Shown one piece after another: positions 3,001 to 62,075 of a DNA stretch of 64,000 nt (the stretch's first letter is position 1; every line of letters starts with the position of its first letter). The stretch is from contig NW_008705564.1 of assembly GCF_000186865.1 (NCBI RefSeq), forward strand, positions 1,285,315 through 1,349,314, read 5' to 3'. The DNA is from Aureococcus anophagefferens. Lineage: Eukaryota; Sar; Pelagophyceae; Pelagomonadales; Pelagomonadaceae. Position numbers and translations under genes: made by a program. The notes beneath the pieces were generated by a model. The model saw only the letters and a list, made by a program, of their open reading frames with translations. It was not told the DNA's origin and ran no database searches.

Positions 3001-6000
3001 TCGCCGAGGGGCGTCTCCGTCGCCGACGCGCGCGTGTCGGGCCTCGAGGGGTCGCCCGCGGACCGCGCCGTCGACGGCGCGCTCGACTCGGTGACGCCGG
3101 CCGTCGTCGGCCGCGACGCGCCGTCGCCCGCGGCCGGCGCCGGCACCGGCGCCAGCGACATGAGGCTGTCGTCGTCGAGGATGTGGCTCAGCGAATCCTC
3201 GATGGACTTCTCGATCATGTGGTCGATGCCGCTCTGTCCCGACGCGAAGCTCGCGTCGTCCGCGGCGCCCGGGGCCGGCGCGGGCGCCGCCCCGAGGTCC
3301 AGCGGGTCGCCGACGGCCGTGCCCGCCGCGACGTCCGCGGGCGCCGGCGGGGGCGCCTCCGCGGGCTCCGCGGCGGGCTCCTCCGCGGCGGCCGCGGGCT
3401 CCTCCGCGGGCTCCTCCGCGGCGGCCGCGGGCTCCGCGGCGGCGGGCGCGGGCTCCGGCTCGGCAGCGATCGCGTCCTCGACGGGCTCGGCGGGCGCGGG
3501 CGCGGGCTCCGGCTCGGCGACGATCGCGTCCTCGACGGGCTCGGCGGGCGCGGGCGCGGCCTCGGGCTCGGCGACGACGACGTCCTCGACGGGCTCCTCC
3601 GCCGGCGCGGGCTCCGGCGCGGCGGCGGCGACGACGTCCTCGACGGGCTCCTCGGCGCGCGCGGGCGCGGGCTCCGGCTCGGCGGCGACCGCGTCCTCGA
3701 CGGCGGCCGCGGCCGCCGGCGGCTCGACGAGCTCCGCGATGCCGAGCTCCGCGAGCGTGACGCCGTCGTCGGCAAGGCTCGCCTCCGTGGCGTCCGTCGC
3801 TCCCGTCGTCGGCCGCGACATGTCCACGGGCAGCTCCGCGGGCGGCTCCTCCGCGGGCGCCGCGGGCTCCGGCGCGGCCGCCGCGGCGTCCTCCGCCGGG
3901 ACCTCGGCGGCCGCGGGCTCCGGCGCCGGCGCGGCGACCTCCGGCGCGGCGGCGACGTCCTCCGCGGGGACCTCGGCCGCGGGCTCCGGCTCCGCGGCCG
4001 CCGCCGCGGCGTCCTCGGCGGGGACCTCGGCGGGCTCCGCCGGCGCGGGCTCCGCGGGCTCCGCGGGCGCGGGCTCCGCGGGCGCGGGCTCGGCCGGTGC
4101 CACGGCCGGCTCCGCCGCCGCGGGCTCCGGCGACGGCGCCGCGGGCTTCTCCGGCGAGCGCTTCGGCGACGGCACGGGCACGAACTCCGGCTCCGACGGC
4201 AGGCGCGCGACCTTGGCCTTGGGCGGCGGCGGCTTGAGCAGGGAGCTCTTGATCTTCGCGTGGCGGCCCGGCCCCGACAGCGACAGCGAGTCGATGATGA
4301 TGTTCGCGATGGCGAGGTCGTCGTGCTCCCACGAGAGCCCCGCGATGTCGCCGTGGTTCCAGTCCAGGTCCTCCTCCGCGAACGTCTTGTTCAGCGTCTT
4401 GTGGATGTCGCTCAGCAGCAGTTCGAGGACGTAGCCGCCCTCGGGCGACCGCGACACGACGCAGAGGCAGTTGCGCTTCGAGACGACGAGGCCCTTGGCG
4501 ACGACGCGGTCGAGCTTCCGGTCGACCACCTTGGTCGCGTCGCGGTCGTCGCGCTTGTTCCGCACCTTGCGGATCTCGACGGCGTCGGGCGTGAGCGTGG
4601 AGAAGAAGGCGGCGACGGCGCGCTCGAGCTTGCGCTGCTCCTCGGGCTCGAGGGAAGAGCCGGCCATGTAGTCCTTCTTCGGCAGCGCGTGCTGCGGCGT
4701 CCAGTCGTTGTCCGTCTTGTGCTTGACGTCGACCTCGAAGGTCGCGTCGCCCTCGCGGACGCGGCAGAGGCAGCGCCGCCCGTGGAACTTGGCCGCCATG
4801 TAGAAGGACGTCGCCGGGTCCACGGAGACGTCGATGGACACGAATGAGGCCTCGTCCTCGACGACGTCGTACGACTCCTCCTCGTCCTCCTCCTCCGCGC
4901 CGGCCATGTCGTAGCCCGGGACCTCGCCGCCGTCGCCGGGGCTCCGGTGCGGCGACCCGGGGCTCCCCGGCGCGGGGCCCTCGCGCAGCGGGCTCCCCGG
5001 CGCGGGCGCGGGCGCGAGCGCGGCCGGCGCGGGCGCCTCCGCGAGCGCCCGCAGCCGCGCCGCCTCCGCCTCCGCCCGCAGCCGCGCCTCCTCGGCGGCG
5101 CGCGCCTCCTCGGCGACGCGCGCCTCCTCGGCGAGCCGCGCGAGGAGGACCTCCGCGTCCAGGAAGGCCAGGCGCGCCGCCGCGGAGTCCGCGGCGTGGT
5201 CCGCCTCGCGGCGCAGCTTGTCGAGCGCGAGCTTCTCCTTTGCCTTTTGCGCGGCCCGCTCCTGGCGCTCCGCCTCCATGTCGTTCTTCAGCCACGTCGT
5301 GATGTCCATGAGGAAGCTCTTCTCGCGCTTCTTCTTCTCGCGGTCCTCCTTCTCCGCGGCGAGACGCGCGGCCTCGGCGGCGTCCGCCTCGGCCTTGAGC
5401 CGCGCCTCCTCCTCCTTGGCCTCGTTCTGCGCCTTGAGCTTCTCCACCATGGACAGGCGCTTCGGCGCGCGGCCGCCGATCATCGTCGGCCCGCGCTTGC
5501 GGCCGAGGCTGAAGCCCGCGGCGGACAACGCGTCCTCGCCCGCGCCGCCCGCGCCGTACATGTTCGACGTCCGCTCCAGGCGGTTCGACGCCAGGACCGT
5601 CTCCCGCGTGCGCCGGAAGGCCGACGTGCGCGACGCGGAGAGCCGCGCGCGCGCCGCCCGCTCCTCGAGCCACTCGACCTGGCGCTTCGCCGCGCCCTTG
5701 GCCAGGCGCATGCGCGCGCGGACCTGCAGCCGCAGCGCGGCCGCGTTCGTCTCGACCTCCACGAGCCGCTTCAGCTCCTCGGCCAGGCCCTGGATGTCGT
5801 ATTGTTCGAGTATCAGCTCCCGCTCGCTCTTGGCCGTGGACACGGAGCCCTGGCCCGTGACGACCGTGCCGCCGCGCGACGCCGCGGAGCCGGCCTTCTT
5901 GCCCGGCCGCCGGCCCAGGGGCGGCCTCTTGCGCACGGGGCTCGTCGCCATGCGCTGGGGCTCGCCCGTGACCCAGGCGCTGCGCATGGGCGGCGACGCG

Positions 6001-12715: not shown

Positions 12716-15110
12716 TTACCCCGCCGCGGCGCTCGCGACCCTGTCCGGCGCGCGCGGCGCGCCGTCCTCGGCGAAGAGCGCGCCGAGGGCCGCGCCGTCG
12801 AGGGTCTCCCGCTTCACGAGGGCCCGCGCGACGCTTCGCAGCGTGCGGTCGTGGTCGCGGACCAGGTCCCGCGCGGCGTCCTCCGCGCGCCTGAGCTCCG
12901 CGCGGACCGCGTCGTCGGCGTCGCCGACGGCCGCGGCGGCGCCGAGGTCCGACATGCCAAAGTTGACGACGATGGCCTTGGCCAGCTCCGCCGTCTTCAT
13001 GAGGTCGTCGCTCGGGCCCGACGAGACGTCGCCCCGGAAGACGTGCGACTCCGCGGCGCGCCCCGCGAGGAGCAGCACGAGGCGGTCCCGGAGCCTGTGC
13101 CGAATTCAACCACTGGTTTGGGCGGTCCTGACAAATCGAATCAGTCGATCGTCGATTCGGCTGATTTTTGGACGAATCGATTGCTCTCGTCGAGTTCTCG
13201 AAGCACAGCCGAAGAGGCTGCGTCGAAACTGTCGCGTACGCTCACATTGAAGTCGAGTTGAAGATTTGAATTCGGCACAGCCCGGAGCTGCGCGCGCGTC
13301 ACGGATTTCGCGTCGTCCGCGCCGAGGAGCGTGACGCCGAGGCTGCCGCCGGCCCGCGGCCGCACGGACGCGCGGATCGCGTCGTCGACGCCCTCGAGCA
13401 CGAAGGACGCGAGCACGTGGCCCGCCTCGTGGACGGCGACGCGCCAGTCGGGCGACTCGCGCGCGCCGTCCAGATCGTCCTCGAGGGGCTTGCCGAGGAG
13501 CACGTCCTCGACGGCGCGCAGGTAGTCGGCCCGCGTCGCGACGTAGCGGCCGTCGGCCATGGCCCCCAGCGCCGCCTCGTTGACGACCGCGTGCACGTCC
13601 GCGCCGACCAGACCCGGCGACAGGCCCGCGAGGTCCGCGGGGAGCGCGGCGTCGTCGGCCTCCGGCGCGGCGCCGGCGTGGGCGACCGTGAAGGCGAGGC
13701 GCTTCGCGTCGGCGCCGTCGCGGAGCGGCGCGCGGCGGCAGCCGAGCGCCGCGGCCGTCGCGGCCGTCGTCGCGAGCGTGTCGTTATGAAGCGTCGCCCG
13801 GAAGCGGTGGCCCGCGGCGCACTTGGGCGCGACGGCCTTGCACGCCAGGGTGCCGTTCGCCGCCTCGACGACGCGCACGAGGGCCGTCGCGCCGCCGGCG
13901 TCGACGGAGAGCTCGCGCGCCGCGGCCGCTTTCAGCTGCTTCTCCACGTAGTGGTCGAAGAGCTTGCGCCGCCCCTCGAGGTCCGGCGCGCGCAGCTCGA
14001 CGATCTTGTCGAAGCGGCCCTTGCGGAGCAGGGCCGCGTCCAGGCTCGTCGCGCGGTTCGTCGCCGCGAGGACGACGACGAGCGGCGCGCCGTCGTCGCG
14101 CGCGCCGAACCTGGGCAGCAAAAGGGTGATTCAACGTCGCTTCAACGTGAGTGTGCCGCGCGCGCGCGTTCCGGAAAAAGCGTCCACGCTTCGAGACCGT
14201 GCCGAGAGATGATCGCTCGTCCAAAAATCAGCCGAAACGAGTGGACAACGGCCGAGATCGGAGCCTTTGAAGTTGGGAAGTTCGCTCTCTTTTGCTGCCC
14301 TGCCCCGAACCCGTCCAGCTCCACGAGCAGCTGGTTCAGCGTGTTGTCGTGGTCCGCGCCGACGGCGGAGCTGTCGCCGCCGCGCGCGCGGCCGCAGGAG
14401 TCGATCTCGTCGATGAAGACGAGCGCCGCGCGCCGCTTCGCCGCCGCGGCCGCGCGCCGCGCGGCCGAGAAGAGCTGGCGCACGCGCTCGACGCCGACGC
14501 CCGCGTACTTGCCCTTGACCATCTCCGAGCCGGAGACGACCAGTAAGGGCGCGTCCAGCGACTCCGCCGCGGCCCGCGCGAGCAGCGTCTTGCCCGTGCC
14601 CGGCGGCCCGACGAGCAGGATGTTCCGCGGCGCCGACGCGCCGCACCGCCGCGCGCGCGTCGCGGCCTCGCGGGACCCGACGACGTCGATGAGCCGCCGC
14701 AGCTCGCGCACGGCGCTCTCGGCGCCGACGACGTCGTCCCAGCCCACGCCGCCCTCGGCGCCCGGCGCGCGGTAGTCGATGAACGAATTCTCCTCGTCGC
14801 CCGCGCGCGCCGCGCCGTCGAAGAGCCGCGCGACGCCGGCGCCGCGGCCGCCGAGCACGGCGTTGAGGACCCGGCTGCAGGCCTGGGGCATGAAGATGCA
14901 GGCGTGGAAGAGGGCCAGCAGCGCCGATGCGCGCTTCGTGCTCGACGACAGGGCCAGGGCGCCGGTCGTCGCGTTCGCGGCCGTGGGCCCGGACGACGTG
15001 CGGTTCTTCGGGAGCTTCTTCAGGTTGACCGTGGCGGGCCGCTTCGGCGATGCCGCCTGGGCGACGACGGCGAGGACCGCGCAGGCGAAGGCGCGGCGAA
15101 GCTTCGTCAT
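12716..15110 (-). CDS. FtsH-like AAA+ zinc metalloprotease, interrupted by two introners
   Basis: Exons 15110-14311, 14110-13289 and 13094-12716 give 666 residues. The N-terminus (MTKLRRAFACAVLAVVAQA) is a signal peptide, which in such algae fits plastid import. AAA domain: Walker A GPPGTGKT (~168), Walker B VFIDEID (~232), and LDAALLRKGRFDK arginine-finger region. Protease domain: HEAGH (~492) and a candidate third Zn ligand in SGPSDDLMKTAEL. Both splice joins restore family-typical sequence (LDGFG|ARDDGAP; RAQ|LRDRLVLLLAGRAAE). An ~85-residue insertion splits the AAA lid before LSPGLVGADVHAVVNEAAL, which is unusual. FtsH proteases degrade membrane proteins in thylakoids or mitochondria. Divergent from the PhyH gene, with about 60 bp between candidate starts. 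Confidence 0.9.
13095..13288 (-). mobile_element. Introner family B copy, antisense, acting as GC-AG intron
   Basis: A 194-bp intron of the protease gene. Termini are CTGTGCCGAATTCAA and its exact inverse. The 8-bp target duplication is GCTCCGGG (13281-13288 and 13087-13094). On the minus strand the intron starts with GC of one duplication copy and ends CACAG. The internal sequence is inverted relative to the copies at 24774 and 60117, yet the frame is restored, so the element works as an intron in this orientation. Confidence 0.88.
14111..14310 (-). mobile_element. Introner family A copy acting as GT-AG intron
   Basis: A 200-bp intron of the protease gene. The element runs from CAGGGCAGCAAAAGAG to ...CTTTTGCTGCCCAG, flanked by GTTCGGGG and GTTCGGCG (7/8 match). 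The 5' GT is inside the left duplication and the 3' AG is the element end. Excision joins the codons for LDGFG and ARDDG. The core carries GGCTGATTTTTGGACGAGCG, shared with the other family A copies. Confidence 0.9.
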
Positions 15111-20711: not shown

Positions 20712-22354
20712 ATGGTGTTCCTCACGATGCACTCGTCGCAGGAGAACGCGCGCTTCCGGCTGAAGCCGGGCATGAAGCTGGGCCTGCTCGTGCTCGAGCG
20801 GCGCCAGGAGCGGTGCCTCGACTTTGCCTGGGCCCAGGAGATGCGCGCGCGCTGCCACGCCTTCGTCAAGGCGCTCTGCCGCGACGAGGGCCACGCCATG
20901 ATCGCGCTCAACGGCCCCGACGAGCGCGTCGCCGACGACCGGACGCTCCGGGCGTCGCTGGAGCGCGCGCGCGCGTCCTGCGACGTCGTCGTCGCGACGC
21001 AGCCGACGTCGGCCGACGGCGCGCTCGCGGCCGTGCTGGCCCAGCACTGCGCGCTGCCCGTCGTGTTCTGGGCGACGCCGGAGAATTTCGAGGTCGTCGG
21101 GTCGCCCTTCGGGGGCATCTCGTCCAAGTCCCTCGTCGGCGCGCAGGACTTCGCGGCCGCGTTCCGCCCAGGGCAGGAAAAGAGAGCGAAATTCCCAACT
21201 TCAAAGGCTCCGATCTCGGCCGTTTTCCACTCGTTCCGGCTGATTTTGGGACGAGCGATCATCTCTCGGAACGGTCTCGGAGCGTGAATGCTTTTTCCGG
21301 AACGCGCAAGCGCGGAACACTCACTTTGAAGCGACGTTGAATCACTCTTGTGCTGCCCAGGTTCCGCCGGTCCGGCCGCTCGGACCTCGAGCTCGTCTAC
21401 GGCGGCCAGGACTGGGCCCGCGCCGTGGCCCAGCTGAAAGCGGCGCTGGGCCGCGCCTATTGCCGCCAGGTCCTGCGGCGCGCCAAGGTCGGCGTCATCG
21501 GCGACGCGCCGCCGGGAGAAACGCCGTACGACGGCGCGGCGGTCGCGAAGACGTTCGCCGCGGTCGTCGAAACCGTCAGCCTGAGCGAGCTCCTGGGCCG
21601 CGCCGCGGGCGCCGACGAGGCGACCATCGTCGAGGACCGCACCATGGAGCACCCCTTCGCGAACCTCGCGTCGGAGCCGGACGCCGATAACCGGAGCAAC
21701 CGGCTCTACGTCGCGCTGAAGTCGATCATCGAGACGGAGAACCTCGACGCGCTCGCCGTGCGCTGCGGGCCGGAGATCGCGCGCGACTACGGCACGTGGC
21801 CCTACGTCGCCTTGACGCGCCTCGCCGACGAGGGGTTCCCCGTGGCGCGCGACGCGGACGTCGACGCCGCGGTGACGATGCTCGTCTGCAAGCTCCTGGG
21901 CTGCGGCGCGCCGCTCCTGGCCGACTGGCTCGAGCACGACGCGGGCTCCTTCATGGCCTGGAACGCGGGCGTCGCGCCCGCGTGCCTCTGCGTCGCCGAG
22001 GGCGGCGTCGGAGCGCCCGCGCCCGCGCGACACTTCGAGGACAAGGTCCACGGCTGCGTCGACGCGACGCTCGAGCCGGGCATGGACGTCACGGTGGCGC
22101 GCTTCTGGCTCCTCGACGGCGTGTACCGTGTCATGGTCTGCGAGGGCAAGAGCCGCCCGCCGCGGCGCCAGCTCGCGGGCTTCAGCGGCGCCGTGGACCT
22201 CGACGTCCTCGACCGCGGCGGCGACGTCTTCGACGCCTTCGAGGCCTGGGTCGTCGACGCCGCCATGCCCAACAAGGTCGTCCTCACCCGGGGCCACCAC
22301 AAGCAGACGCTCCTCAAGTTCGCCCGCGCCCACAAGATCGTCGTCGTCGCCTGA
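20712..22354 (+). CDS. FucI/AraA-fold sugar isomerase-like protein, split by an introner
   Basis: Exons 20712-21160 and 21361-22354 give 480 residues. Excision of the introner joins AAAF to RRSGRSDLELVYGG. The C-terminal half resembles the L-fucose/L-arabinose isomerase fold: RCGPEIARDYGTWPYVALTR, then DADVDAAVTMLVCKLLG, ADWLEHDAGSFMAWNAG, and a final GHHKQTLLKFAR. Such enzymes interconvert aldoses and ketoses using a divalent metal; Glu, Asp and His candidates lie in these segments. No targeting peptide is evident. The fold assignment is moderately sure, the substrate unknown. A TTGAAC motif lies 54 bp upstream of the ATG. Confidence 0.7.
21161..21360 (+). mobile_element. Introner family A copy with perfect 8-bp target duplication
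   Basis: A 200-bp intron. Left duplication GTTCCGCC at 21161-21168, element CAGGGCAGGAAAAGAG ... GTGCTGCCCAG, right duplication GTTCCGCC at 21361-21368. The donor GT belongs to the duplication, the acceptor AG to the element. Confidence 0.93.
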
Positions 22355-23805: not shown

Positions 23806-26172
23806 ATGGTGCGGCTGCCCCTCGCGCTGCTCGCCGTCACGAGCGCGGACGTCTTCGAGGTGTCGCTGCCCATCGGCGGCGAGGCGGAGCTGCGCTGCAG
23901 CGTCGACGACGCGTCGGACGCGCCGCTGCAGGCCTGCGCGGCCAGCGCCGTCGCCGGCCTCGGCGACGGCGCCGCGGTCTTCCCGGACTGCGGCGGCGAC
24001 GCGGCCTGCGCGAGCCGGTCGCTGCTGCGGGAGGGGCTGGAGACCTTGATCGCTCGCGCCGCCGGGCGGGACGTCGGCGCCGTCGCCTGCGGCCGCGACG
24101 CGTGCGCGGCGCCCGCCGCCGCGGCGGTCCTCGCCGCCGCGGACGCCGTCGGCGGCTTCGCCTGCGGCGGCGCGGCGCTGCCCCTCGTCGCGACGGGCGA
24201 CGTCGCGCCGCTCCTGGCGGCGCTCGCCGAGGGCGGCGACGTCGCCCGCGCGGGCTGCGGCGGCGTCGAGCGCGGCCCGCACCGCGTCGTCCTCGTCGAC
24301 GGCCGCGGCCTCGACTGCAGCGCGGTCGTCGCCGCCGAGGCCGGGCTCCGGGCCCTCGCCCCGGGCGGGACGCTGGTCATCCGCGGCGCGGCGCCCTGCG
24401 CCGACGGGACCTACGGCGACGCGTGGCGCGCGGCGCTCCTTTTGAAGGCGCGCGCGTGGCTCGACGTCGCCGTGGGCGCGCTCGACGGCGGCGTCGCCCT
24501 CGTGCGCCGGCGACGGGCGCGCCACTTCGTGGAAGACTATGGCGTCGCCCCCCGTGTCTGCGCCTTCGGCGACTTCCTGGCGCGCCGGCACCTGCTCTGG
24601 GGCCGGCCGCGCGTGCCCGGCGCGAACGGGCCCGAGCCCCTCGACGGCAACGGGCTCCTCGCCTGGGCGTCGGACGTGCGGGGCGACGCCCCGGCGCGCG
24701 ACGCCGCCTGCGACGCGCGCGAGGCCGCGGCGCTCGGCGCGCGGTTCGCGGCGTCGCGGACGCTCGTGCAGGGGCCCGGGGCTGTGTGGAATTCAACCAC
24801 CGGATTGGGTGGTCCTGACCAAACTTCAGAATTCTCTAGCTCGGTCAAATCGAAGTCGATTCGGCTGATTTTTGGACGAATCGATTGCTCTCGTCGAGTT
24901 CTCGAAGCACAGCCGAAGATCTTGCGTCAAAACTGTCGCATACGCTCACATTGAAGTCGGGTTGAAGATTTGAATTCCACACAGGCCCGGCGACGGCTGG
25001 AACTACGCGTCGGCGCTGGGCTGCCCGGACCAGGACTGGCTCGCGCCGCTCCTGCGGGCGGAGGCGGCGGGCACGCGCGACTTTGCGCGGCGGCCCGGGA
25101 CGCCCTTTCTGGCCGTCAACGTCGGCGCGAACAAGGGCTTTGGCGTCGCGAAGTTGCTCAAGGAGCTCGCGCCGAGCCTCGGCGTCACGCCGGCGACCTG
25201 GGGCGCCTTCGTCCGCGCCGCCGGCGCGAAGGTCGCCTGCGGCTGGTGCCGCGACTGCCTCGAGGACGACGGCGACGTCGACGCGCGCGTCGGCCGGTTC
25301 CCGACGTGCGCGTCTCCCGGCGGCTTCGCGGCGCGCGAGCTCCCGCTTCGAATCGTCGTCCACGCCGTCGAGCCCCTGGCGGCGAACGTGGAACTGTTGC
25401 GCGGCGCCCTGCGCGGCCTCGGCTTCGCGGCACACGGCGACGCCTGGACCAAGGCGTCGCGCGAGGCCGAGGCGACCGTCGCGCGCCACGGGGTGCGACA
25501 TTCCCAACTTCTATCCCGGTCGTTGTCCACTCGTCTCGGCTGTTTTTTGGACGAGCGATCGTCCCTCGCAGCGTGGACGCTTTTCCCGGAACGCGCGCGC
25601 GCGGCACACTCACGTTGAAGCGACGTTGAATCACCCTGTTCCAGGTGCTCCACCGGCTCGCGCTCGCGGAGAAGCGGTCCGTCGCGTCGTTCCCGTCCCT
25701 CGCCGCGGGCGAGGAGGTCGGCGCCGTCTGCCCCGCCGGCGAGGCCTGCGAGGCCGCGGCCTTCGAGGGCCGCTTCGGCGGCGACGCGCCCGCGTTCGAG
25801 AGCGTCACCGTCGAGACGCTCGACGCGCTGGTCCCCGGCGCGACGGTCGACTTCTTGCTCCTCGACGTCGAGGGCTACGACCCCCTCGTCCTCGCCGGCG
25901 GACGCGAGACCGTGGCGCGCGCGCGCTTCCTCGAGTTCGAGTACCACTTCCGCGGCGCGTGGGCGGAGGACGTCACGCTCGAGCGGACCGCCGCGGACCT
26001 CGACGCGGCGGGCTTCGACTGCTACCTCCAGGGCGCCCACAGCGCGCTCTGGCGCCTGTCGCGGGGCTGCTTCCACGCCGCCTTCGAGCTCCGGGCATGG
26101 TCCAACGTCGCGTGCGTCCGCCGCGACGAGCCCGCGTGGGCCGCGATCCTCGACGAACGGGCCGTGTATTAG
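23806..26172 (+). CDS. Secreted FkbM-type methyltransferase with two introners
   Basis: Exons 23806-24773, 24985-25492 and 25645-26172 give 667 residues. Signal peptide MVRLPLALLAVTSA. The N-terminal part resembles a Methyltransf_24 tail without a clear SAM loop (VVLVDGRGLDCSAVV ... LAPGGTLVIRGAAPC ... GVALVRRR). The C-terminal FkbM methyltransferase domain has VNVGANKGFGVAKLL (~368) and DFLLLDVEGYDPLVLAGG (~560), with HAVEPLAANVELL between. Splicing joins VQGP to GDGWNYAS and ARHG to VLHRLALAEK. FkbM enzymes methylate hydroxyls, often on sugars. Both introner families occur in this one gene. Confidence 0.85.
24774..24984 (+). mobile_element. Introner family B copy acting as GC-AG intron
   Basis: A 211-bp intron. 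Target duplication GCCCGGGG / GCCCGGCG (7/8). Terminal inverted repeats CTGTGTGGAATTCAA and its exact inverse. The donor GC comes from the duplication and the acceptor CACAG from the element end. Confidence 0.9.
25493..25644 (+). mobile_element. Shortened introner family A copy
   Basis: A 152-bp intron. The left terminal repeat and flank are lost: GTGC is followed directly by internal family A sequence (ATTCCCAACTTC). The right part is intact up to GTTGAATCACCC, then degenerates to TGTTCCAG before GTGCTCCA. It still provides GT and AG, and joining restores an open frame, so splicing probably survived the deletion. Confidence 0.8.
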
Positions 26173-30682: not shown

Positions 30683-32172
30683 TCACTCCGCGGGCGACGC
30701 GTCCTCGACGTCGCGCGCGAGCATGGGCCTCGAGATGCCCCAGGCCTCGCCGATGTCCTTGCAGTCCTGCATGGAGACGAGCGATCATCTCTCGGAACGG
30801 TCTCGAAGCGTGGATGCTTTTTCCGGAACGCGTGCGCGCGGAACACTCACGTTGAAGCGATGTTGAATCACCCTCGTCCCGCCCTGGCCGGCACGTCGGC
30901 AGGCCCGTCGCGTCGTCGATGGCGATCGTCGCCTTCGAGTCCTTGACGAGGAAGGAGAGGTCGAACATGTTCTCCACGGTCTCGCAGAAGGAGTCCGGGT
31001 TGACGACGAGGGACATGAGGTCCAGGCCCGGGGCGTTTTTCGCGCCGTCCGTCGCCGGGTCGACGCCCGCGGACCGCATCTTCGACATCATGACGTCGTT
31101 GAGCTTCTGGAGCCGCAGGTTCGTCGCCTCCTCTTGCTGCGATGGGGGTGTGCCGTCGCTATGACTCGGTGCCGCTCGGAGGATGCGAGAGCGGTGGCCT
31201 TAAGGGCGTCGGTCCGCGGGCCCGCGCGCCCGGACGGATAACCCGCCGCGAGGAGGGCGCGCGCGCGCCGCGCGCGAGATATAGACTCTCGCGTTGGTGT
31301 TCCCCGGGTGTCTGGACGAAAGAAGCGTAGAAGAGGTGATCTGGTGTGTCGCGCCTCGATCGCAATTTGCCCGGGGGCGCCCTCGATGAAGAAAAAAACG
31401 GCGGACGCGGAAAAAACGCGCCTGCGCGGCGCCCTCCTTGAAGCCGCTCGTCGTCTCGTACTGGGTCTCCTCCTCGCCGTCGTCGACGACCTTCTTGCGC
31501 CGCTGCGCCGCCTTCTTCTCCTTCTCCGGCTTCTGGAGCGGCCCGCAGAGGAACGACGCCTCCGGGACGGCGCGGAAGAGGCCCGCGCACTGCGCGCCGA
31601 GGGCGACCCAGTCCATGTCGCCGCCGGCCTTGGTGAAGTCCTGCGACAGCGCCTTGCCGATGTCCGCCGCGCTGTACTGCGACACGTTCTTCGCGAGCTT
31701 GCCCGCGCGCTTCATCTGCGGGGGCGGGGCGGGCGGCGACGCTCGGGCGGCGCGCGCGCGCGGCCGCGGGTAGGGGCGCCGGCGCGCGCCGCCGCCTCGG
31801 AGAGCTGCACGAGGATGTCGCCGTCGTTGACCATCTGCGGGGGGGGTCCGGGTCGCGGCGCGGAACCGCGGGAACCTTCCGGCGCGCCGGCGGCCGGCGG
31901 CCCGCGCGCGCGCGCGGCGGCCCCGCGGGTCGCGCGGCCCGGCGACGCACCTCGCGGTTGAAGCGGACCTTCTTGAAGAGGTTGTTGTTGTTGTTCCGCT
32001 CCTCGTCGAAGGCGTCGTGGTCCAGGTCCTGCAGGTCGACATTGCGGTCGCCGATGCGGTCGTAGAGCGTGCGCTGCTCCTGGCGCAGGATGCGCCGCTC
32101 CTCCTCGGTCTGGCCCTCCATCACCGGGGTCTTGTCCTTGACCTTCCGCTTCGTCGTCTGGGAGGCGGCCAT
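30683..32172 (-). CDS. Nse4-like kleisin subunit of SMC5/6, 3' splice region damaged
   Basis: Inferred exons: 32172-31951, 31834-31784, 31715-31431, 31136-30895 and about 30778-30683. Exon 1 holds EEERRILRQEQRTLYDRI ... NNNNLFKKVRFNRE, exon 3 the conserved middle (MKRAGKLAKNVSQYSAADIG ... GGDMDWVALGAQ), and exon 4 the Nse4 C-terminal signature NPDSFCETVENMFDLSFLVKDS (quoted in part). The last part reads VSMQDCKDIGEAWGISRPML. Nse4 bridges the SMC5/6 heads in DNA repair. Intron 1 is GT-AG, introns 2 and 3 need GC donors. The last intron is a truncated antisense introner joined directly to coding sequence with no usable AG in frame, so the gene is either disrupted or misassembled here. Confidence 0.72.
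30779..30894 (+). mobile_element. Truncated introner family A copy, antisense to its host gene
   Basis: The plus strand carries the right half of family A (GAGCGATCATCTCTCGG ... TTGAAGCGATGTTGAATCACCC) ending TCGTCCCGCCCTG, next to GCCGGCAC (a candidate target duplication, GTGCCGGC on the host strand). The other half and its flank are missing; coding sequence for VSMQDC starts directly at 30778. Confidence 0.8.
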
Positions 32173-48723: not shown

Positions 48724-50768
48724 TTAAAACAGCACCCGCGCCCACGCCCCGAGGACGGCGACGGCCTCCCGCTCCGCGAGCGCTTTGGCCGCGTCGAGGC
48801 CCGGCGTCCGCGGCTTTCGCTCCGTGTGGGCCCAGGCGCGCTCGTGGAGGTTCGTCACCCAGCACCGCGTGTTCCAGTGGGCCTGGACCTGGGGGTGGAG
48901 CACGTGCTCGACCCCGGCCCAGTCGATTCCCGGCCGCGCGTCGACGACGTCCGTGCCGACGTAGTACGCGGCGACGAGGGCGCTGATGGCGCCGTCGCAG
49001 GCGCGGAAGAGGTCGCGGAGCTCGTTGTTGTCGAGGCGCCGGCCGCTGCCGGCGCAGAGCTCGTCGCAGTAGGCGATGAAGAACTGGTCCTCGTGGCGGT
49101 CGTACGTCTCGTGCGGGATCCCCGAGAACGTGCCGCCGAGGAGCAGCGGCAGGGGCCCGAAGCCCGCGCCGCCCCAGTCGAAGGGCGCCACGAGCACCTC
49201 GTACTTGGCGTCGCCCATGGTGAATTTCGCGTTGTCCGGCTGGAGGTTCGCGTGCGCGAAGACGCGCAGCCGCGGGTCGAAGAGGATCCGCGCGAGGAAG
49301 AGCGGCAGGTAGGACGCGGCGTCGAGCGCGCTCGCTTCGAAGCCGTCGACGTCGAGGGCGCGGAAGAGCCCCGCGGTGCGCGCGAAGGCGAAGCCCTTGG
49401 CGCCGAGCCGCGCCGCGCACCGCCGCGCGAGCCATCGCCCGGGCTTCGTCGCGAGGCAGAGAAAGCAGCACCGGACCGCGGCGGCGAAGAGCCACGCGCC
49501 CAAGGTCGTCGGCCTTTCGTAGAGCGCGGCGTAGACGGGATGGGCGATGTTCGGGCCGCCCCAGACCTGCGTCGCGGCCGCGCCGAAGTCGCCGCGCTCC
49601 GCGGCCGCCGCGAGTTGGCCCTGGCAGCGCATGAGCGCGCCGTAGTAGTGCTCGAGGCGCAGGGGCCAGGGGCAGGGGTCGTAGCGGTCCCGGAACTTCT
49701 CCCGGTGCGGGAGCGTCGTCCCCGGGAGCGGCGCCGTCAGCTCCTTGCGGTTCGAGGGGTCGAGCATGACCTGGGCAGCACAAGGGTGATTCAACGTCGC
49801 TTCAACGTGAATGTTCCGCGCGCGCGCGTTCCGAAAAAAGCATCCATGCTTCGAGACCGTTCCGAGAGATGATCGCTCGTCCAAAAATCAGCCGAAACGT
49901 GTGGAAAACGGCCGAGATATGAGCCTTTGAAGTTGGGAATTTCGCTCTCTTCTGCTACCCTGAGCATGACCTCGAGGTCAGAAGGGGGAAAGGAGAAGCG
50001 CTCCGTGACGACGACGTAGTCCGTCGATTGACGGTCGAGGTCGGCGAAGTAGAGCTTGGGCACGTCGAAGGGCAGCACGCCGTGGCCGAGGAACTGGTAG
50101 ACGGACAGCTCCTTGCCGTCGGCGTCGGAGCCGCAGGAGATGCGCTCGCGCCAGCTCCGGTTGTTGTTCGCGCCCCAGGGCACCTTGGCGAAGAGCCGCG
50201 TGTGGAGGTGGGGCGCCGGCTTGGCGTACTCGACGGCGAAGAGCGCCTTCTCGCCCGCGCCGCCCGCGGCGTACTGCCCCTGCGGCGCCAAGACCTCGAA
50301 GTCGAACACGCGCGCGACGGCGTTGTCGTTGCCGAGCGTGCCGCAGGCGCGGAAGGCCCGCGTGAGCCAGGCGGCGTCGTCGAGGTCCGCGATGGCGCCG
50401 GGCAGGGGCACGCCGTGCCACGCGCCGGGCGGCCGCGTGCCCGTCCGCGCGGCGACGTCGGCCCAGGGCACCTTGACGAAGGGCGGCAGCGGGCCGACGA
50501 GGGCCCGCCCCGCCGGCGGCAGCGGCGCGCCGCCGAGGTCGCCGAGCCGCAGGCGCTCGCCGCCCGTCGTCACGACGCCGTCGCCGTCGGCGGCGGCGAC
50601 CGTGACGCGCGCGCCCTCGCGCGGGCCCTGGGCGACGTGGTAGTCGCAGCCCACCTTGGCGCGCGTCAGCAGGCCCGGCGTGCGGAAGAGCAGCTCCACG
50701 GGCCAGGACGAGACGACGCGCGCGCGCTGGGCGTCGCGCTGCGACGTCGGCGGAGATGGGGCTGCCAT
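48724..50768 (-). CDS. Aminoglycoside-phosphotransferase/ecdysteroid-kinase-like protein, split by an introner
   Basis: Exons 50768-49971 and 49770-48724 give 614 residues. Splicing joins SDLE to VMLDPSNRKEL. The C-terminal half carries a kinase-like catalytic loop, VFAHANLQPDNAKFTM (~438; HxNLxxDN in place of HGDLxxxN), and EVLVAPFDWGGAGFGPLP with the metal-binding Asp, as in EcKinase/APH proteins. The N-lobe includes YQFLGHGVLPFDVPKLYFAD. The first ~120 residues are an extra beta-rich region. The substrate is a small molecule, unknown. The Gly-to-Ala/Asn change in the loop may still allow activity. Confidence 0.8.
49771..49970 (-). mobile_element. Introner family A copy with perfect 8-bp target duplication
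   Basis: A 200-bp intron with duplication GTCATGCT at 49963-49970 and 49763-49770. The element starts CAGGGTAGCAGAAGAG and ends GTGCTGCCCAG on the minus strand. Same length and organisation as the copies at 14111 and 21161. Confidence 0.92.
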
Positions 50769-57360: not shown

Positions 57361-60300
57361 ATGGCGCCGCGCGGCGAGCGGGCGCACATCGTCAACGACC
57401 CCCAGGCCGACGAGCTGGCGACCCTCCTCGAGCGGACGCTGGCGCTCGAGGAGTCCCTCCGCGGCGAGTGCCCGGCCTCGGCCATCGAGGAGGCGAAGCG
57501 CGGCGCGGACCTCGCGCGGGCGCGGGACTACGCGTCGCGGCTCCAGGAGCTCGCGCGCCAGCACGGCGTGCGGTCGCCGCGGCCCGGCGGGCGCGCGCCG
57601 CTCGCGCGCGCGGAGAGCCTCATCGCGTGGGAGCCGAGCTCCGGCGCCATCGAGGACCACCTCGAGCGCGTGCGGCGCTTCATCGCGTCGTCGGAGGCCG
57701 CGGCGGCGATGCGCGGCGGCCTCGCCGTCGCCTTTTCGGGCGTGTCGCTCGCCGCGACGGTCGACGCCTCGAGCCCGGCGATCAAGACCGTCGCGAACTC
57801 GAACCCCGTCGGCGGCGTCGTCGCCGCCGTGCTCGCCGGCCGCCGCGCGCGCAAGGGCGGCCGGCCCCTCCGGAAGACCTTCTACGTGCTCAAGGATTTG
57901 AAGGGGACGCTGGCCCCGTCGACGTCGACGCTCGTCCTCGGCCCGCCCGGCTCGTCGAAGACGTCGTTCCTCAAGCTCGTCGCGGGCCGCCTCCGGCCGT
58001 CCGGCGACGTCCGCCTCGCGGGGACCGTGACCTACAACGGCATCGACGTCTACGGCGCGGCCCGGCGTCCCGCGGCCGCGACGAACGTTCGAGAGATGCG
58101 GGGCGGGAAACCGATCGTCACCGTCGCGCTCGGTAGGCAAGGCCCGGCCCTTCATGCCCGCGAAGGTCGCGACGTTCGTGTCCCAGATCGACCAGCACGC
58201 GCCGTGCATCCCGGTGCGGGAGACGCTGCGCTTCGCCTTCGAGACGCAGGCGCCCGACGCCGCGCGGCCCCGCGGCGGCGTCCGCATGCCCTTCCAGAAG
58301 CTGCTCGCGAACAAGGTCGACGCGATCATGAAGGTCTTCGGCATCGACCACGTCGCGGACACGATCGTCGGCGACGCGCTGCGCCGCGGCGTCTCGGGCG
58401 GCCAGCGGCGGCGCGTCACCGTCGCCGAGATGGTCATGGGCGCGCACCGCCTCATCTGCGGCGACGAGATCACGACGGGCCTCGACTCGCAGACGGCCTA
58501 CGAGCTCGTCCACGCCATCGCGGCCGCGTCCAAGGTCTTCCGGAAGACGTCGGTGCTGAGCCTCCTCCAGCCGCCGCCGGAGGTCTTCGACTGCTTCGAC
58601 GCGCTCGTCCTCCTCGACTCCGGCCGCGTCATCTACCACGGCCCGCCCGAGGCGGCGACGGCCTACTTTGGCGCGCTGGGCTTCGTCGTGCCCCGCCGCA
58701 AGGACGCGGCGGATTTCCTCGTCGAGGTGCCGACGACGGTCGGCCGGTCCTACCTGGCCGCGGGCGCGGCGGCCGCGCCGCACACGGCGGACGAATTCCT
58801 CGCGACCTTCGAGGCGTCGTCGGCGCGCGCGGCGCTCGACGCGCTCGCGGGGGAGCCCGCGGACCTCGCGCCCGACGACTGGTCCCGCGGCGAGCGGTTG
58901 GCCTTCGAGCGGCCCCTGGCCTACTACGCCGGCCTCTGCGCGCGGAAGTACCGCGAAGTCCGGGGCGACCCGGCCATGTACGTCTCCAAGGTCGTGTCGA
59001 CGACGATCGTCGGCTTCGCGACGGGCACGGTCTTCCGGGGCGTCGCCTACGACGACTTCGCCACGAAGTACGGCCTCGCGTTCAGCGCCGTCGTCACGAT
59101 CGGCCTCGGCGGCATGTCGAGCATCGCGGGCCTCATCGACCGCCGCGCGACGTTCTACAAGCAGCGCGACGCCTTCTTCTTCCCGACGCTCGCCTACAAC
59201 CTCGCGGAGATCTGCGTCGACCTGCCGATCGTGTTGCTAGAAGCCCTCGTCTACGCGAACGCCGTCTACTGGTTCGTCGGCTTCACGGCGTCGGCGTTCC
59301 CCGCGTTCTTCCTCGTCGTCTTCCTCGTGTCGCTGTCCATGCGCCAGCTCTTCGCGACCTTCGCGGCCGTCATGCCCAGCGCGGCCGCGGCGCAGCCGGC
59401 CGCGGGGCTCACGGTCGTGCTCTGCGTCCTGTTCTCGGGCTTTGTGATCGCGCGCGACAACATCCCGGTCTACTGGCTCTTCTTCTACTGGTTCTCGCCC
59501 GTGGCCTGGGGGCTGCGGGCCGTGCTCGTCAACGAGTTCCGGTCGTCGACCTACGACAAGTCGACGCCGGACGTCCTCGTCAAGCTGGGCTGCGACCCGG
59601 AGGACACGGACGGCGTCTGCTTCCTCTCCCAGTTCGACTTCCAGCACAACCGCGCCTGGGTCACGCTCGGCGTCGGGGTGCTGGCCGGCTATTTCCTGGT
59701 CTTCGCCGTCGCGTCGACCGTCGCGCTCGACACGATCCGCCACGGGTCCGCGGGCGCGCCGTCGTCCGGCGACGACGACGACGTCGACTTCGCGGGCGAC
59801 GACGACGCGTCCGACGCGGGCGCCGCGGAGCCGCCGCCGCTGCTGTGCACGCTGCCGTCGCCGCGGCGGGGGTCCGCGGCGCATAAGGCCGCGGAGACGC
59901 GCGCGCGGAACTCCTCGACCGTCGTGCCCGAGACCGTGGACGCCGTCGCGTCGTCGCTGCCCTTCGAGCCGGCGACGCTGAGCTTCCACGACGTCCACTA
60001 CTTCGTGCCCGTGCCCAAGTCGAGCGACCGCGCCGCGCCGGACCGGCTCGAGCTGCTGGACGGCGTGTCCGCGTTCTGCAAGCCCGGCGACATGACGGCG
60101 CTCATGGGCTCGTCGGGCGCGGGCCTGTGTGGAAATCAACCAGTGAGCTGGGTTATCCCAACCAAACTTCAGAACTCTCTATCTCAGTCAAATCGAAGTC
60201 GATTCGGCTGATTTTTAGACGAATCGTGTGCTCTCATCGAGTTCTCGAAGCACAGCAGAAAGCCTTGCGTCGAAACCGTCGCATACGCGCACATTTAAGT

Positions 60301-62075
60301 CGGGTTGAAGATTTGATTTCCACACAGGCGCGGGCAAGACGACGCTGCTCGACGTGCTCGCGGGGCGGAAGACGGGCGGCTGGATCACGGGGAACATCTC
60401 CCTCAACGGCCGGCCGAAGGACCAAAAGCTCTGGGTCCGGGTCTCGGGCTACGTGGAGCAGCTCGACGTCCACAGCCCCGGCGCGACGGTCGCGGAGGCC
60501 GTCGACTTCTCCGCGCAGCTCCGGCTGCCGCAGTCGACGGCGCCCAAACAGCGGTCCGCCTACGTGCGGGACATTTTGGACCTCCTCGAGCTCGGGCCCG
60601 TGGCGCGGCGGCTCGTCGGGTCCATCGCCGAGGGCGGCCTGAGCTTCGAGCAGCGCAAGCGCCTCACGATGGCCGTCGAGATGGCCGCGAATCCCGCGGT
60701 GCTCTTCTTGGACGAGCCGACGTCCGGTCTGGACAGCCGCGCGGCGCTCGTCGTCATCCGCGCGGTCGCCAACGTCGCGAAGACGAACCGGTCCGTCATC
60801 TGCACGATCCACCAGCCGTCGGCGGCGCTCTTCCTCGCCTTCGACCGGCTCCTGCTGCTCAAGAAGGGCGGCAAGATGGTCTACTTCGGCGAGCTCGGCG
60901 AGGACTGCGCGGCGCTCGTGTCCTACCTCTCCGACGCCGCGACGTCGCTCGGCGCGGGCCTGCCGCCGCTCGCCGAGGGCCAGAACCCGGCGACGTGGAT
61001 GCTCACCGCCGCCGTCGACCCGGACGCGGACTTCGCCGATTTCTACAAGTTCTCGCCCCTGGCCAAGGCCAACGAGGCCGAGGTGCTCGCCGCGCTCGAG
61101 GGCTCGGCGCCGACGCGGAACCCGCTCCTGGGCGGCGGCCTCGAGGCGCCGCTCCTCGACGGCGACGCGCCGCCGCCGGACGCGGAGCCGGGCCCGTCGA
61201 TGGCGACGGAGTTCCTGATCCTGTCGAAGAAGATGGCCATCACGTACTGGCGGTCGCCGGCGTACAACGTCGCGCGCCTCATGGTTTCCGTCATCGTGAG
61301 CGTCTTCTTCGGCTCCTGCTACACGGCTAAGATCACGGACGTCAACGGCGCGCTCGGCCGCTCGGGCCTGCTCTTCGTGTCGACGTACTTCATGGGCGTC
61401 ATCTACATGGTCACGGGCATGCCGCTCGTCGCCGCGGAGCGCGCGGCGTTCTACCGGGAGCAGTCGTCGTCCATGTACCGGCCCCTGCCCTACGCCATGG
61501 CCTACGTGCTCGTGGAGATCCCCTACCTCGTCGTCTACTCGTTCATCTTCTGCGGGGTCCTCTTCGGCATCGTGGACATGTACGGCGGCTACGAAAAGTT
61601 TCTGTGGTACGTGGCCATCTACATGGGCTACGTGTCCTTCATGTGCTTCTTCGGCCAGTTTCTCGTGGTCGCGCTGCCGGACGAGGCCTCGGCGCAGGCC
61701 ATCGGGCCGTCGGTGTCGTCGCTGTTCTCCCTCTTCTCCGGCTTCGTCATCGCCCCCGCGAAGATGCCGAGCTTCTGGATGTTCATGTACTGGATCTCGC
61801 CCTGCCACTACTTCTTCGAGGGCCTCGTCGTGACGCAGTTCCACGGCGTCTCCAAGGAGGTCGTCGTCGGCGCGATCCCCACGCCGGCCGGCCCCGTGCC
61901 CGTCGAGGTGTCGCTGTCGACGCTCCTCACGGGCAAGGGGCCCTTCTCGAAATTCAACGGCGAGTTCCTCTGGGAGCACCGCTGGACGGACCTCATCTTC
62001 CTCTTCGCCATGGTCGCCGCGCTGCGGATCCTCTCCACGTTCTTCCTCGCCTTCGTCAAGTACAAGACCGTCTAG
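57361..62075 (+). CDS. Full-size ABCG/PDR-type transporter, two introns
   Basis: Exons 57361-58059, 58142-60116 and 60328-62075 give 1473 residues, normal for PDR proteins. Order is NBD-TMD-NBD-TMD. NBD1: Walker A GPPGSSKT (~194), signature VSGGQRRRV (~317), Walker B RLICGDEITTGLDS. TMD1 follows (FATGTVFRG ... WLFFYWFSPVAWGLRAVLVN). NBD2: Walker A GSSGAGKTT (~888), signature LSFEQRKRL, Walker B LFLDEPTSGLDS, H-loop TIHQPS. TMD2 ends near VKYKTV. Both NBDs have catalytic Glu, but NBD1 has Gln (LLQPPPE) at the H-loop, as usual in PDRs. Exports lipids or small molecules, substrate unknown. Intron 2 is an introner inside the Walker A codons. Confidence 0.95.
58060..58141 (+). other. 82-bp GC-AG intron flanked by near-perfect 8-bp repeat
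   Basis: GCCCGGCG at 58060 and GCCCGGCC at 58142 flank 74 bp of unique sequence ending GGTAGGCAAG. Donor GC and acceptor AG give VYGA|ARPFMPAKVATFVSQ, the expected PDR sequence. The insert matches neither introner family A nor B. Confidence 0.75.
60117..60327 (+). mobile_element. Introner family B copy in the Walker A motif of the ABC transporter
   Basis: A 211-bp intron. Perfect duplication GCGCGGGC at 60117-60124 and 60328-60335; termini CTGTGTGGAAATCAA with exact inverse at the other end. Removal as GC-AG restores GSSGAGKTT; without splicing the frame soon stops. Confidence 0.93.

What the first reader, a model, noticed from the sequence alone, without database searches (positions are those of the whole stretch)
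21161..21360. Introner family A: a 200-bp DNA-transposon-like element that is an intron, donor GT taken from the target duplication
Copies at 14111-14310, 21161-21360 and 49771-49970 are each exactly 200 bp (8-bp duplication plus 192-bp element) with CAGGG..CCCAG termini; 25493-25644 and 30779-30894 are shortened. All target duplications begin with GT (GTTCGGSG, GTTCCGCC, GTCATGCT, GTGC...). Excision restores the coding frame in each intact case. Introner elements of this logic are known from Aureococcus and Micromonas; these copies look young, as target duplications are intact or nearly so.
Basis: partly seen in the sequence, partly recalled or inferred. Interest (0 to 1): 0.8.

Follow-up and report, generated by a model that had tools for sequence, protein, structure and literature searches.

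The report
Brown-tide alga's intron-making mini-transposon
A short mobile DNA piece, present in over a thousand copies in the brown-tide alga Aureococcus, gives each gene it lands in a new intron by using a duplicated bit of that gene as one splice site; this was already published for the alga, but most copies appear to use an unusual "GC" splice start that public gene models can misread.

Summary

Family A is a 192-bp element with 8-bp duplications and at least 1,066 exact-pattern full-length copies. In 40 copies with flanks, removing the element plus one duplication keeps the reading frame in 39; shifts of 1-2 bases keep it in 0-1.

Of 812 left ends genome-wide, 432 have GC and 350 GT eight bases upstream: 96.3% GY against 19.8% background. 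A GC copy inside a Prp5/DDX46 helicase is absent from a read-through protein of unnamed source, while three of four named A. anophagefferens proteins translate part of it.

In the gene's sense all 40 flanked copies end CCCAG and 38 start CAGGG, whichever way the body lies. In the body's sense the second bases are A..A 730, T..T 329, T..A 7, A..T 0. I propose that one end keeps CAG for the transposase and the other supplies the AG acceptor. No transposase was found; no RNA-seq was available.

The parts
21161..21168 (+). Intronic copy of the 8-bp target duplication (GTTCCGCC); its first two bases are the proposed donor
   Evidence: Identical to 21361-21368
21169..21360 (+). Family A element, 192 bp, CAGGG..CCCAG; last two bases are the proposed acceptor
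   Evidence: frame kept on removal, as L001; P0001 reads across the junction
21361..21368 (+). Exonic copy of the target duplication
   Evidence: 8 of 8 identical
14111..14310 (-). Family A intron (duplication 14303-14310 plus element 14111-14302) in an AAA+ ATPase gene; exonic duplication copy 14103-14110
   Evidence: 7 of 8 identical duplication; frame kept; junction at LDG|F has no gap in the alignment to solved Cdc48 chains, though the query has four surplus residues a few positions downstream
49771..49970 (-). Family A intron (duplication 49963-49970 plus element 49771-49962); exonic duplication copy 49763-49770
   Evidence: 8 of 8 identical duplication; frame kept
25493..25644 (+). Shortened, diverged family A copy, 152 bp, proposed donor GTGC, acceptor CCAG
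   Evidence: Profile match; exact removal keeps frame
30776..30894 (-). Family A fragment with the donor-side duplication candidate (GTGCCGGC); acceptor not established
   Evidence: Profile match 30776-30885; boundary test inconclusive
60117..60335 (+). Family B copy with its two duplications (element 60125-60327, GCGCGGGC on both sides) inside the P-loop of an ABC transporter
   Evidence: removal with a GC donor restores GSSGAGKTT
24774..24992 (+). Family B copy with its duplications (element 24782-24984, GCCCGGGG/GCCCGGCG)
   Evidence: 7 of 8; frame kept
13087..13288 (-). Family B copy with its duplications (element 13095-13280, GCTCCGGG on both sides in the sense of the minus strand)
   Evidence: frame not tested, as the end-finder did not parse it

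Best explanation
Family A is an introner of Aureococcus anophagefferens: a 192-bp nonautonomous DNA transposon with short terminal inverted repeats that duplicates 8 bp of target. Inserted in a gene with its CCCAG end downstream, it is a ready-made spliceosomal intron. The AG acceptor is the element's last two bases; the donor is the first two bases of the intronic copy of the duplication; the exonic copy restores the gene exactly. Shown by sequence: the element, the duplications, the copy number, frame restoration, GY at the donor position, and proteins without the element at two loci. Inferred: that removal is spliceosomal RNA splicing, and that copies that could not be spliced were lost. 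The donor seems to need little beyond G followed by C or T, so most donors are GC in this GC-rich genome. The unit that moves is the repeat-bounded DNA, not the spliced RNA, because the 8 intronic bases before the element are specific to each locus.
For: 39 of 40 frames kept, against 0-1 of 40 with a shift of 1-2 bases. 29 of 40 duplications identical, 35 of 40 with at least 7 of 8. 782 of 812 left ends have GY eight bases upstream, against 19.8% GY in coding flanks. All 40 flanked copies lie with CCCAG downstream of coding sequence in the same sense. P0001 reads across the 21161-21360 junction with no residue added or lost. At L007 (duplication GCGGGCTA) the joined helicase aligns without a gap at the junction to a solved DDX46 chain, and P0125, of unnamed source, has the same junction.
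Against: No RNA reads were available; P0001 and P0125 could be alleles without the element rather than spliced transcripts. The frame test is modulo 3, and the alternative GT inside the L007 copy also keeps frame (72 bases retained). Three of four named A. anophagefferens proteins do retain that stretch, and the fourth lacks 20 residues before the junction. L028 does not keep frame with the standard boundaries. 30 of 812 left ends lack GY. 31 of the 40 flanked copies lie in loci found by similarity to one copy. L013 has a near-tied downstream frame.
Confidence: 0.9

Rival explanations
1. Copies with GC at the duplication are not spliced there. They use a GT inside the element, so the first part of the introner is translated, as in public gene models.
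For: Three of four named A. anophagefferens helicase proteins carry 24 residues encoded by the duplication and the first 64 bases of the element. For family B, the named protein P0006 has four extra residues in the P-loop, the same sum (4 bp of element + 8 bp of duplication) that PMC9860276 reports for an introner family of an Aureococcus sp..
Against: If an inner GT were the donor, nothing would demand GY eight bases upstream, yet 96.3% have it. P0125 and the DDX46 chain lack the insert. Four extra residues would break the P-loop of the ABC transporter, which exact removal restores.
Confidence: 0.07
2. The GY at the start of the duplication is a target preference of the integrase, not a result of splicing.
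For: Very few copies, at most about 4.6%, can sit at sites of random dinucleotide, although a quarter of sample windows are not coding-like; loss of unspliceable copies from genes alone does not explain the scarcity elsewhere.
Against: No mirrored RC at the far end of the duplication: 11 of 40 against 21% expected, p = 0.33. A two-fold symmetric integrase should show it. GT is favoured over GC about threefold relative to background, as donors would be.
Confidence: 0.12
3. The coupling of the two end bases is a founder effect of two master lineages, with no functional rule.
For: Few masters can seed most copies of such families (general knowledge). Family B has CTGTG-type ends on both sides and is found in both orientations, so a CAG end is not needed by every introner here.
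Against: Each class holds several inner-repeat variants, yet the second bases stay coupled: 730, 0, 7, 329 (Fisher p about 1e-271, a test that ignores shared descent).
Confidence: 0.5
4. The copies spread as spliced RNA (reverse splicing).
For: Nearly all copies are in spliceable position, as an RNA route would give.
Against: The spliced unit includes the 8 upstream bases, but these are locus-specific and match the downstream side; an RNA copy would carry them along. The shared sequence begins at an inverted repeat.
Confidence: 0.02

Closest known systems
Introner elements of Aureococcus anophagefferens (Huff, Zilberman and Roy 2016, Nature 538:533; not held by the library, abstract recalled)
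   Same: Same species; short nonautonomous DNA transposons; one splice site carried, the other co-opted from the duplicated target (recalled). Direct and terminal inverted repeats of constant length (PMC7789003, passages), both orientations (PMC10228655, passages), characteristic length about 210 bp (PMC9481584, passages).
   Different: PMC7789003 describes their splicing motifs as canonical, whereas here GC donors outnumber GT. I could not see whether the 2016 paper reports this, or the end-base rule.
Introner family 4 of an Aureococcus sp. metagenome genome (Gozashti et al. 2022, PMC9860276, passages)
   Same: 8-bp duplication in the same genus.
   Different: Reported to carry both splice sites and to add 12 bp to the transcript; the example spans about 77 bp. 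Family A adds nothing at the two loci with protein evidence.
hAT-type miniature inverted-repeat elements (recalled)
   Same: 8-bp duplication and a CAGGG-type end (recalled as typical of hAT).
   Different: No hAT dimerisation domain found, though that search had no positive control; duplications lack the symmetric nTnnnnAn pattern recalled for hAT.
Exceptionally frequent GC-AG introns of A. anophagefferens (PMC3033335, passages)
   Same: 39.6% of annotated introns GC-AG there; 432 of 782 GY donors are GC here.
   Different: That paper calls the origin an enigma; here the donors can be traced to duplicated GC-rich exon sequence.

Membership tests
A. anophagefferens introner elements | Host species | tested here: met
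Against: a RAG-like element end motif of this species gave 0 hits in the one form searched.
A. anophagefferens introner elements | Many near-identical copies that act as introns in coding sequence | tested here: met
   1,066 exact-pattern copies; 40 of 40 flanked copies in coding sequence, 39 keep frame
A. anophagefferens introner elements | One splice site in the element, the other in the target duplication | tested here: met
   CCCAG end in 40 of 40 and GY start of the duplication; by sequence only
A. anophagefferens introner elements | Canonical splicing motifs (as worded in PMC7789003) | tested here: not met
   If canonical means GT-AG: 432 of 812 left ends have GC. PMC3033335 reports many GC-AG introns in the species, so this does not exclude membership.
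A. anophagefferens introner elements | Insertion between nucleosomes | not tested
   No nucleosome map at hand
A. anophagefferens introner elements | Removal by RNA splicing seen in RNA reads | not testable with these tools
   No RNA-seq; indirect protein evidence only
hAT-superfamily MITE (features recalled) | 8-bp target duplication | tested here: met
   29 of 40 identical, 35 of 40 at least 7 of 8
hAT-superfamily MITE (features recalled) | Partner hAT transposase in the genome | tested here: inconclusive
   PF05699 gave 0 matches here and 0 in the 14 control genomes
hAT-superfamily MITE (features recalled) | Target pattern nTnnnnAn | tested here: not met
   Exonic duplication: T at position 2 in 16 of 40, A at position 7 in 6 of 40
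Introners spreading by reverse splicing | Copied unit equals spliced unit | tested here: not met
   The first 8 intronic bases are locus-specific

The most novel reading that the evidence does not exclude
The two ends of family A record a compromise between two machines. The transposase needs the CAG form at one end at least; the spliceosome needs the other end to have the CTG form, which read outward is CAG and supplies the AG acceptor. Elements with one end of each kind flourish in either body orientation (730 and 329 exact copies). Two CAG-form ends give no acceptor (0 copies); two CTG-form ends give an acceptor both ways but would move poorly (7 copies). The reversed class would have arisen through that rare form: the acceptor-type repeat was copied onto the other end, then one base changed. 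Alongside, the spliceosome here would accept a bare GY donor, GT being favoured over GC only about threefold after allowing for base composition.
Probability: 0.35. Interest if true: 0.62.

Novelty: already known. Interest (0 to 1): 0.42.

Why it matters
It gives the abundant GC-AG introns of this alga, called an enigma in 2011 (PMC3033335), a simple source: donors copied from GC-rich exons. It offers hundreds of natural donors that share an acceptor and an intron body but differ in donor sequence, a ready test of how little a 5' splice site needs. It also shows that public A. anophagefferens proteins can contain translated introner sequence where gene models missed a GC donor.

Tried and rejected
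Transposase search: hAT dimerisation domain (PF05699) and KDZ (PF18758) gave no match, but neither found anything in the 14 control genomes, so absence is not shown. No other transposase family was searched.

RAG-like element ends reported for this species: 0 hits with up to 2 mismatches, in the 4-base-spacer form only.

Symmetric target motif GY..RC: rejected (11 of 40 against 21%, p = 0.33).

Inversion of the body between the end repeats as origin of the reversed class: disfavoured, because the two full reversed copies keep the GTG-type inner repeat at the body's 3' side, where inversion predicts mostly AGAG. Only two copies.

Tree of the reversed class: not possible with two full copies and a fragment; the two are 91% alike and closer to forward copies.

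30779-30894 as an intact intron: rejected.

Frame test on family B: nine copies were run. Two were not parsed; four with 7-8 of 8 duplications and both flanks kept frame; L031 (8 of 8) had too short an upstream flank to tell; L025 and the minus-strand L044 copy got wrong ends (2 of 8), the latter not keeping frame. And for family B an inner GT donor would also keep frame (12 bases), so I rest no claim on it.

Paper searches: (7 of 10). Huff 2016 was asked for and is not held; statements about it are recalled or come from the passages named. PMC11237714: first part of the whole text. All other papers: passages only.

Full report
What was checked. A search of the window's own genome (49.05 Mb, 86 contigs) gave 1,857 first-look candidates, of which 40 were scored. 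In 264 kb taken without regard to the element (the window and twenty 10-kb stretches; about 27 kb of it N) a profile found 13 copies or fragments, roughly 2,700 for the genome if that sample is typical. Exact-pattern counts give 1,066 full-length copies (730 + 7 + 329), with reversed-pattern controls at 0.

Which organism. The ABC transporter gene of the window matches a protein named Aureococcus anophagefferens at 1,140 of 1,204 aligned positions, 59 of the rest being gaps. The helicase gene of locus L007 matches four proteins so named. Against this, a RAG-like element end motif reported for the species (PMC9435367, passages) gave 0 hits in the one spacer form searched; strains may differ.

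Is it an intron? A codon model trained on long open frames of the sample (third-position GC 94%) was applied to 180 bp either side of 40 copies. 31 of these lie in loci found by similarity to the 21161 copy, which is itself among them, and nine come from the even sample, so well-preserved copies are over-represented. In all 40 the flanks score best as coding in the sense in which CCCAG is downstream. Removing the element and one duplication keeps the frame in 39 of 40; removing 1 or 2 bases more or fewer keeps it in 0 or 1 of 40. The exception, L028, has a poor duplication match (3 of 8). In that script the 3' end was chosen among CAG trinucleotides, so the CAG there is partly imposed; the CCC before it and the frame are not.

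Direct protein evidence. P0001 (99% identical, source tag lgn, no name) reads across the 21161-21360 junction without added or lost residues. At L007 the duplication is GCGGGCTA, so the donor is GC unless a site inside the element is used. The joined protein aligns without a gap at the junction to a solved DDX46 chain, and P0125 (source tag ena, no name, 1,021 aa on a 3,984-base contig) has the same junction. Three of four named A. anophagefferens helicase proteins carry 24 residues there, encoded by the duplication and the first 64 bases of the element, up to a GT; the fourth lacks 20 residues before the junction. I read these as gene-model errors caused by the GC donor. P0001 and P0125 may be spliced transcripts or alleles without the element; at L007 the insertion is shared by at least three named records, which favours a transcript. 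In the AAA+ gene of the 14111 copy the junction falls at LDG|F with no gap in the alignment to Cdc48 chains, but four surplus residues follow a few positions downstream.

The donor. Of 812 exact left ends genome-wide, 432 have GC and 350 GT eight bases upstream: 782, or 96.3%. In coding flanks GC and GT together make 19.8% of dinucleotides, in the ratio 3.8 to 1. So GY is nearly obligatory, and GT is favoured about threefold over GC after allowing for composition. Positions 3-8 show no GTRAGT-like consensus, only some excess of T at position 3 (11 of 40). No mirrored RC appears at the far end of the duplication (11 of 40 against 21%), so the requirement is one-sided, as splicing would make it. 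At most about 4.6% of copies can lie at sites of random dinucleotide, although a quarter of sample windows are not coding-like (969 of 3,875). Loss of unspliceable copies from genes does not by itself explain so few copies elsewhere; a bias towards inserting in genes is likely and unexplained here.

Which unit moves. The shared sequence starts at the inverted repeat, and the 8 intronic bases before it differ from locus to locus while matching the downstream side. Spliced RNA would have carried them along. So the moving unit is DNA between the repeats.

Two polarities. In the body's orientation the second base of the two ends is A..A in 730 copies, A..T in 0, T..A in 7 and T..T in 329. In the sense of the gene all 40 flanked copies, two of them with reversed body, end CCCAG; 38 start CAGGG, one CCGGG, one CGGGG. 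Left ends with CTGGG mostly have an inner repeat of GTG type (92 of 100 listed of 485, counted by eye), which forward copies mostly have at their 3' end (30 of 38) and seldom at their 5' end (53 of the 58 printed are AGAG, by eye; 36 of 38). This suggests that the acceptor-type repeat was copied onto the other end. The two full reversed copies keep the GTG type at the body's 3' side too, and one of them has AGAG at its body-5' end, so simple inversion of the body does not fit well. A model that fits is that the transposase requires one CAG end while the spliceosome requires the other end to provide AG. Two master lineages would fit about as well.

Family B. A second family shares part of its core with family A but has other ends (CTGTGTGG..CCACACAG), so an AG exists at both ends; copies lie in both orientations relative to their genes (15 hits). 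At 60125-60327 one splits the P-loop of the ABC transporter: removal with a GC donor restores GSSGAGKTT, while the named proteins P0006 and P0009 read GSSGAGLC. That is the outcome of a GT four bases inside the element, the arithmetic that PMC9860276 reports for an Aureococcus sp. family, so for family B the donor is open; the broken P-loop speaks for GC at this locus.

What is known. Introners of this species were published in 2016 (recalled; not held). From passages read: direct and terminal inverted repeats of constant length and canonical motifs (PMC7789003), both orientations and insertion between nucleosomes (PMC10228655), about 210 bp as characteristic length (PMC9481584). GC-AG introns are 39.6% in A. 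anophagefferens, their origin called an enigma (PMC3033335). A search for introner with GC-AG and donor found three papers, two of which I saw in passages. In what I read I did not meet the link between GC donors and target duplications, nor the end-base rule, but the primary paper was out of reach. I therefore file the finding as already known, with details that may be new.

Noticed in passing
L007 around 1493-1700; proteins P0126, P0127, P0130: Three of four named A. anophagefferens helicase proteins contain 24 residues translated from an introner and its duplication; public proteomes may hold more such insertions.
   Followed up: partly
window 60117-60335; proteins P0006, P0009: A family B introner sits inside the P-loop of an ABC transporter gene; named proteins read GSSGAGLC there instead of GSSGAGKTT.
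   Followed up: yes
window 13087-13288, 24774-24992, 60117-60335: Second introner family with symmetric CTGTG..CACAG ends, 8-bp duplications and a core related to family A, found in both orientations relative to genes.
   Followed up: partly
G000:C8, C9, C13, C16, C19, C21: Seven rare family A copies with two CTGGG-type ends, possible intermediates between the two polarity classes.
   Followed up: no
G000 (whole genome): A RAG-like element end motif reported for A. anophagefferens gave no hit with up to 2 mismatches in the 4-base-spacer form.
   Followed up: no
window 3324-3808: Direct repeats of about 54 bp spacing within a long open frame.
   Followed up: no
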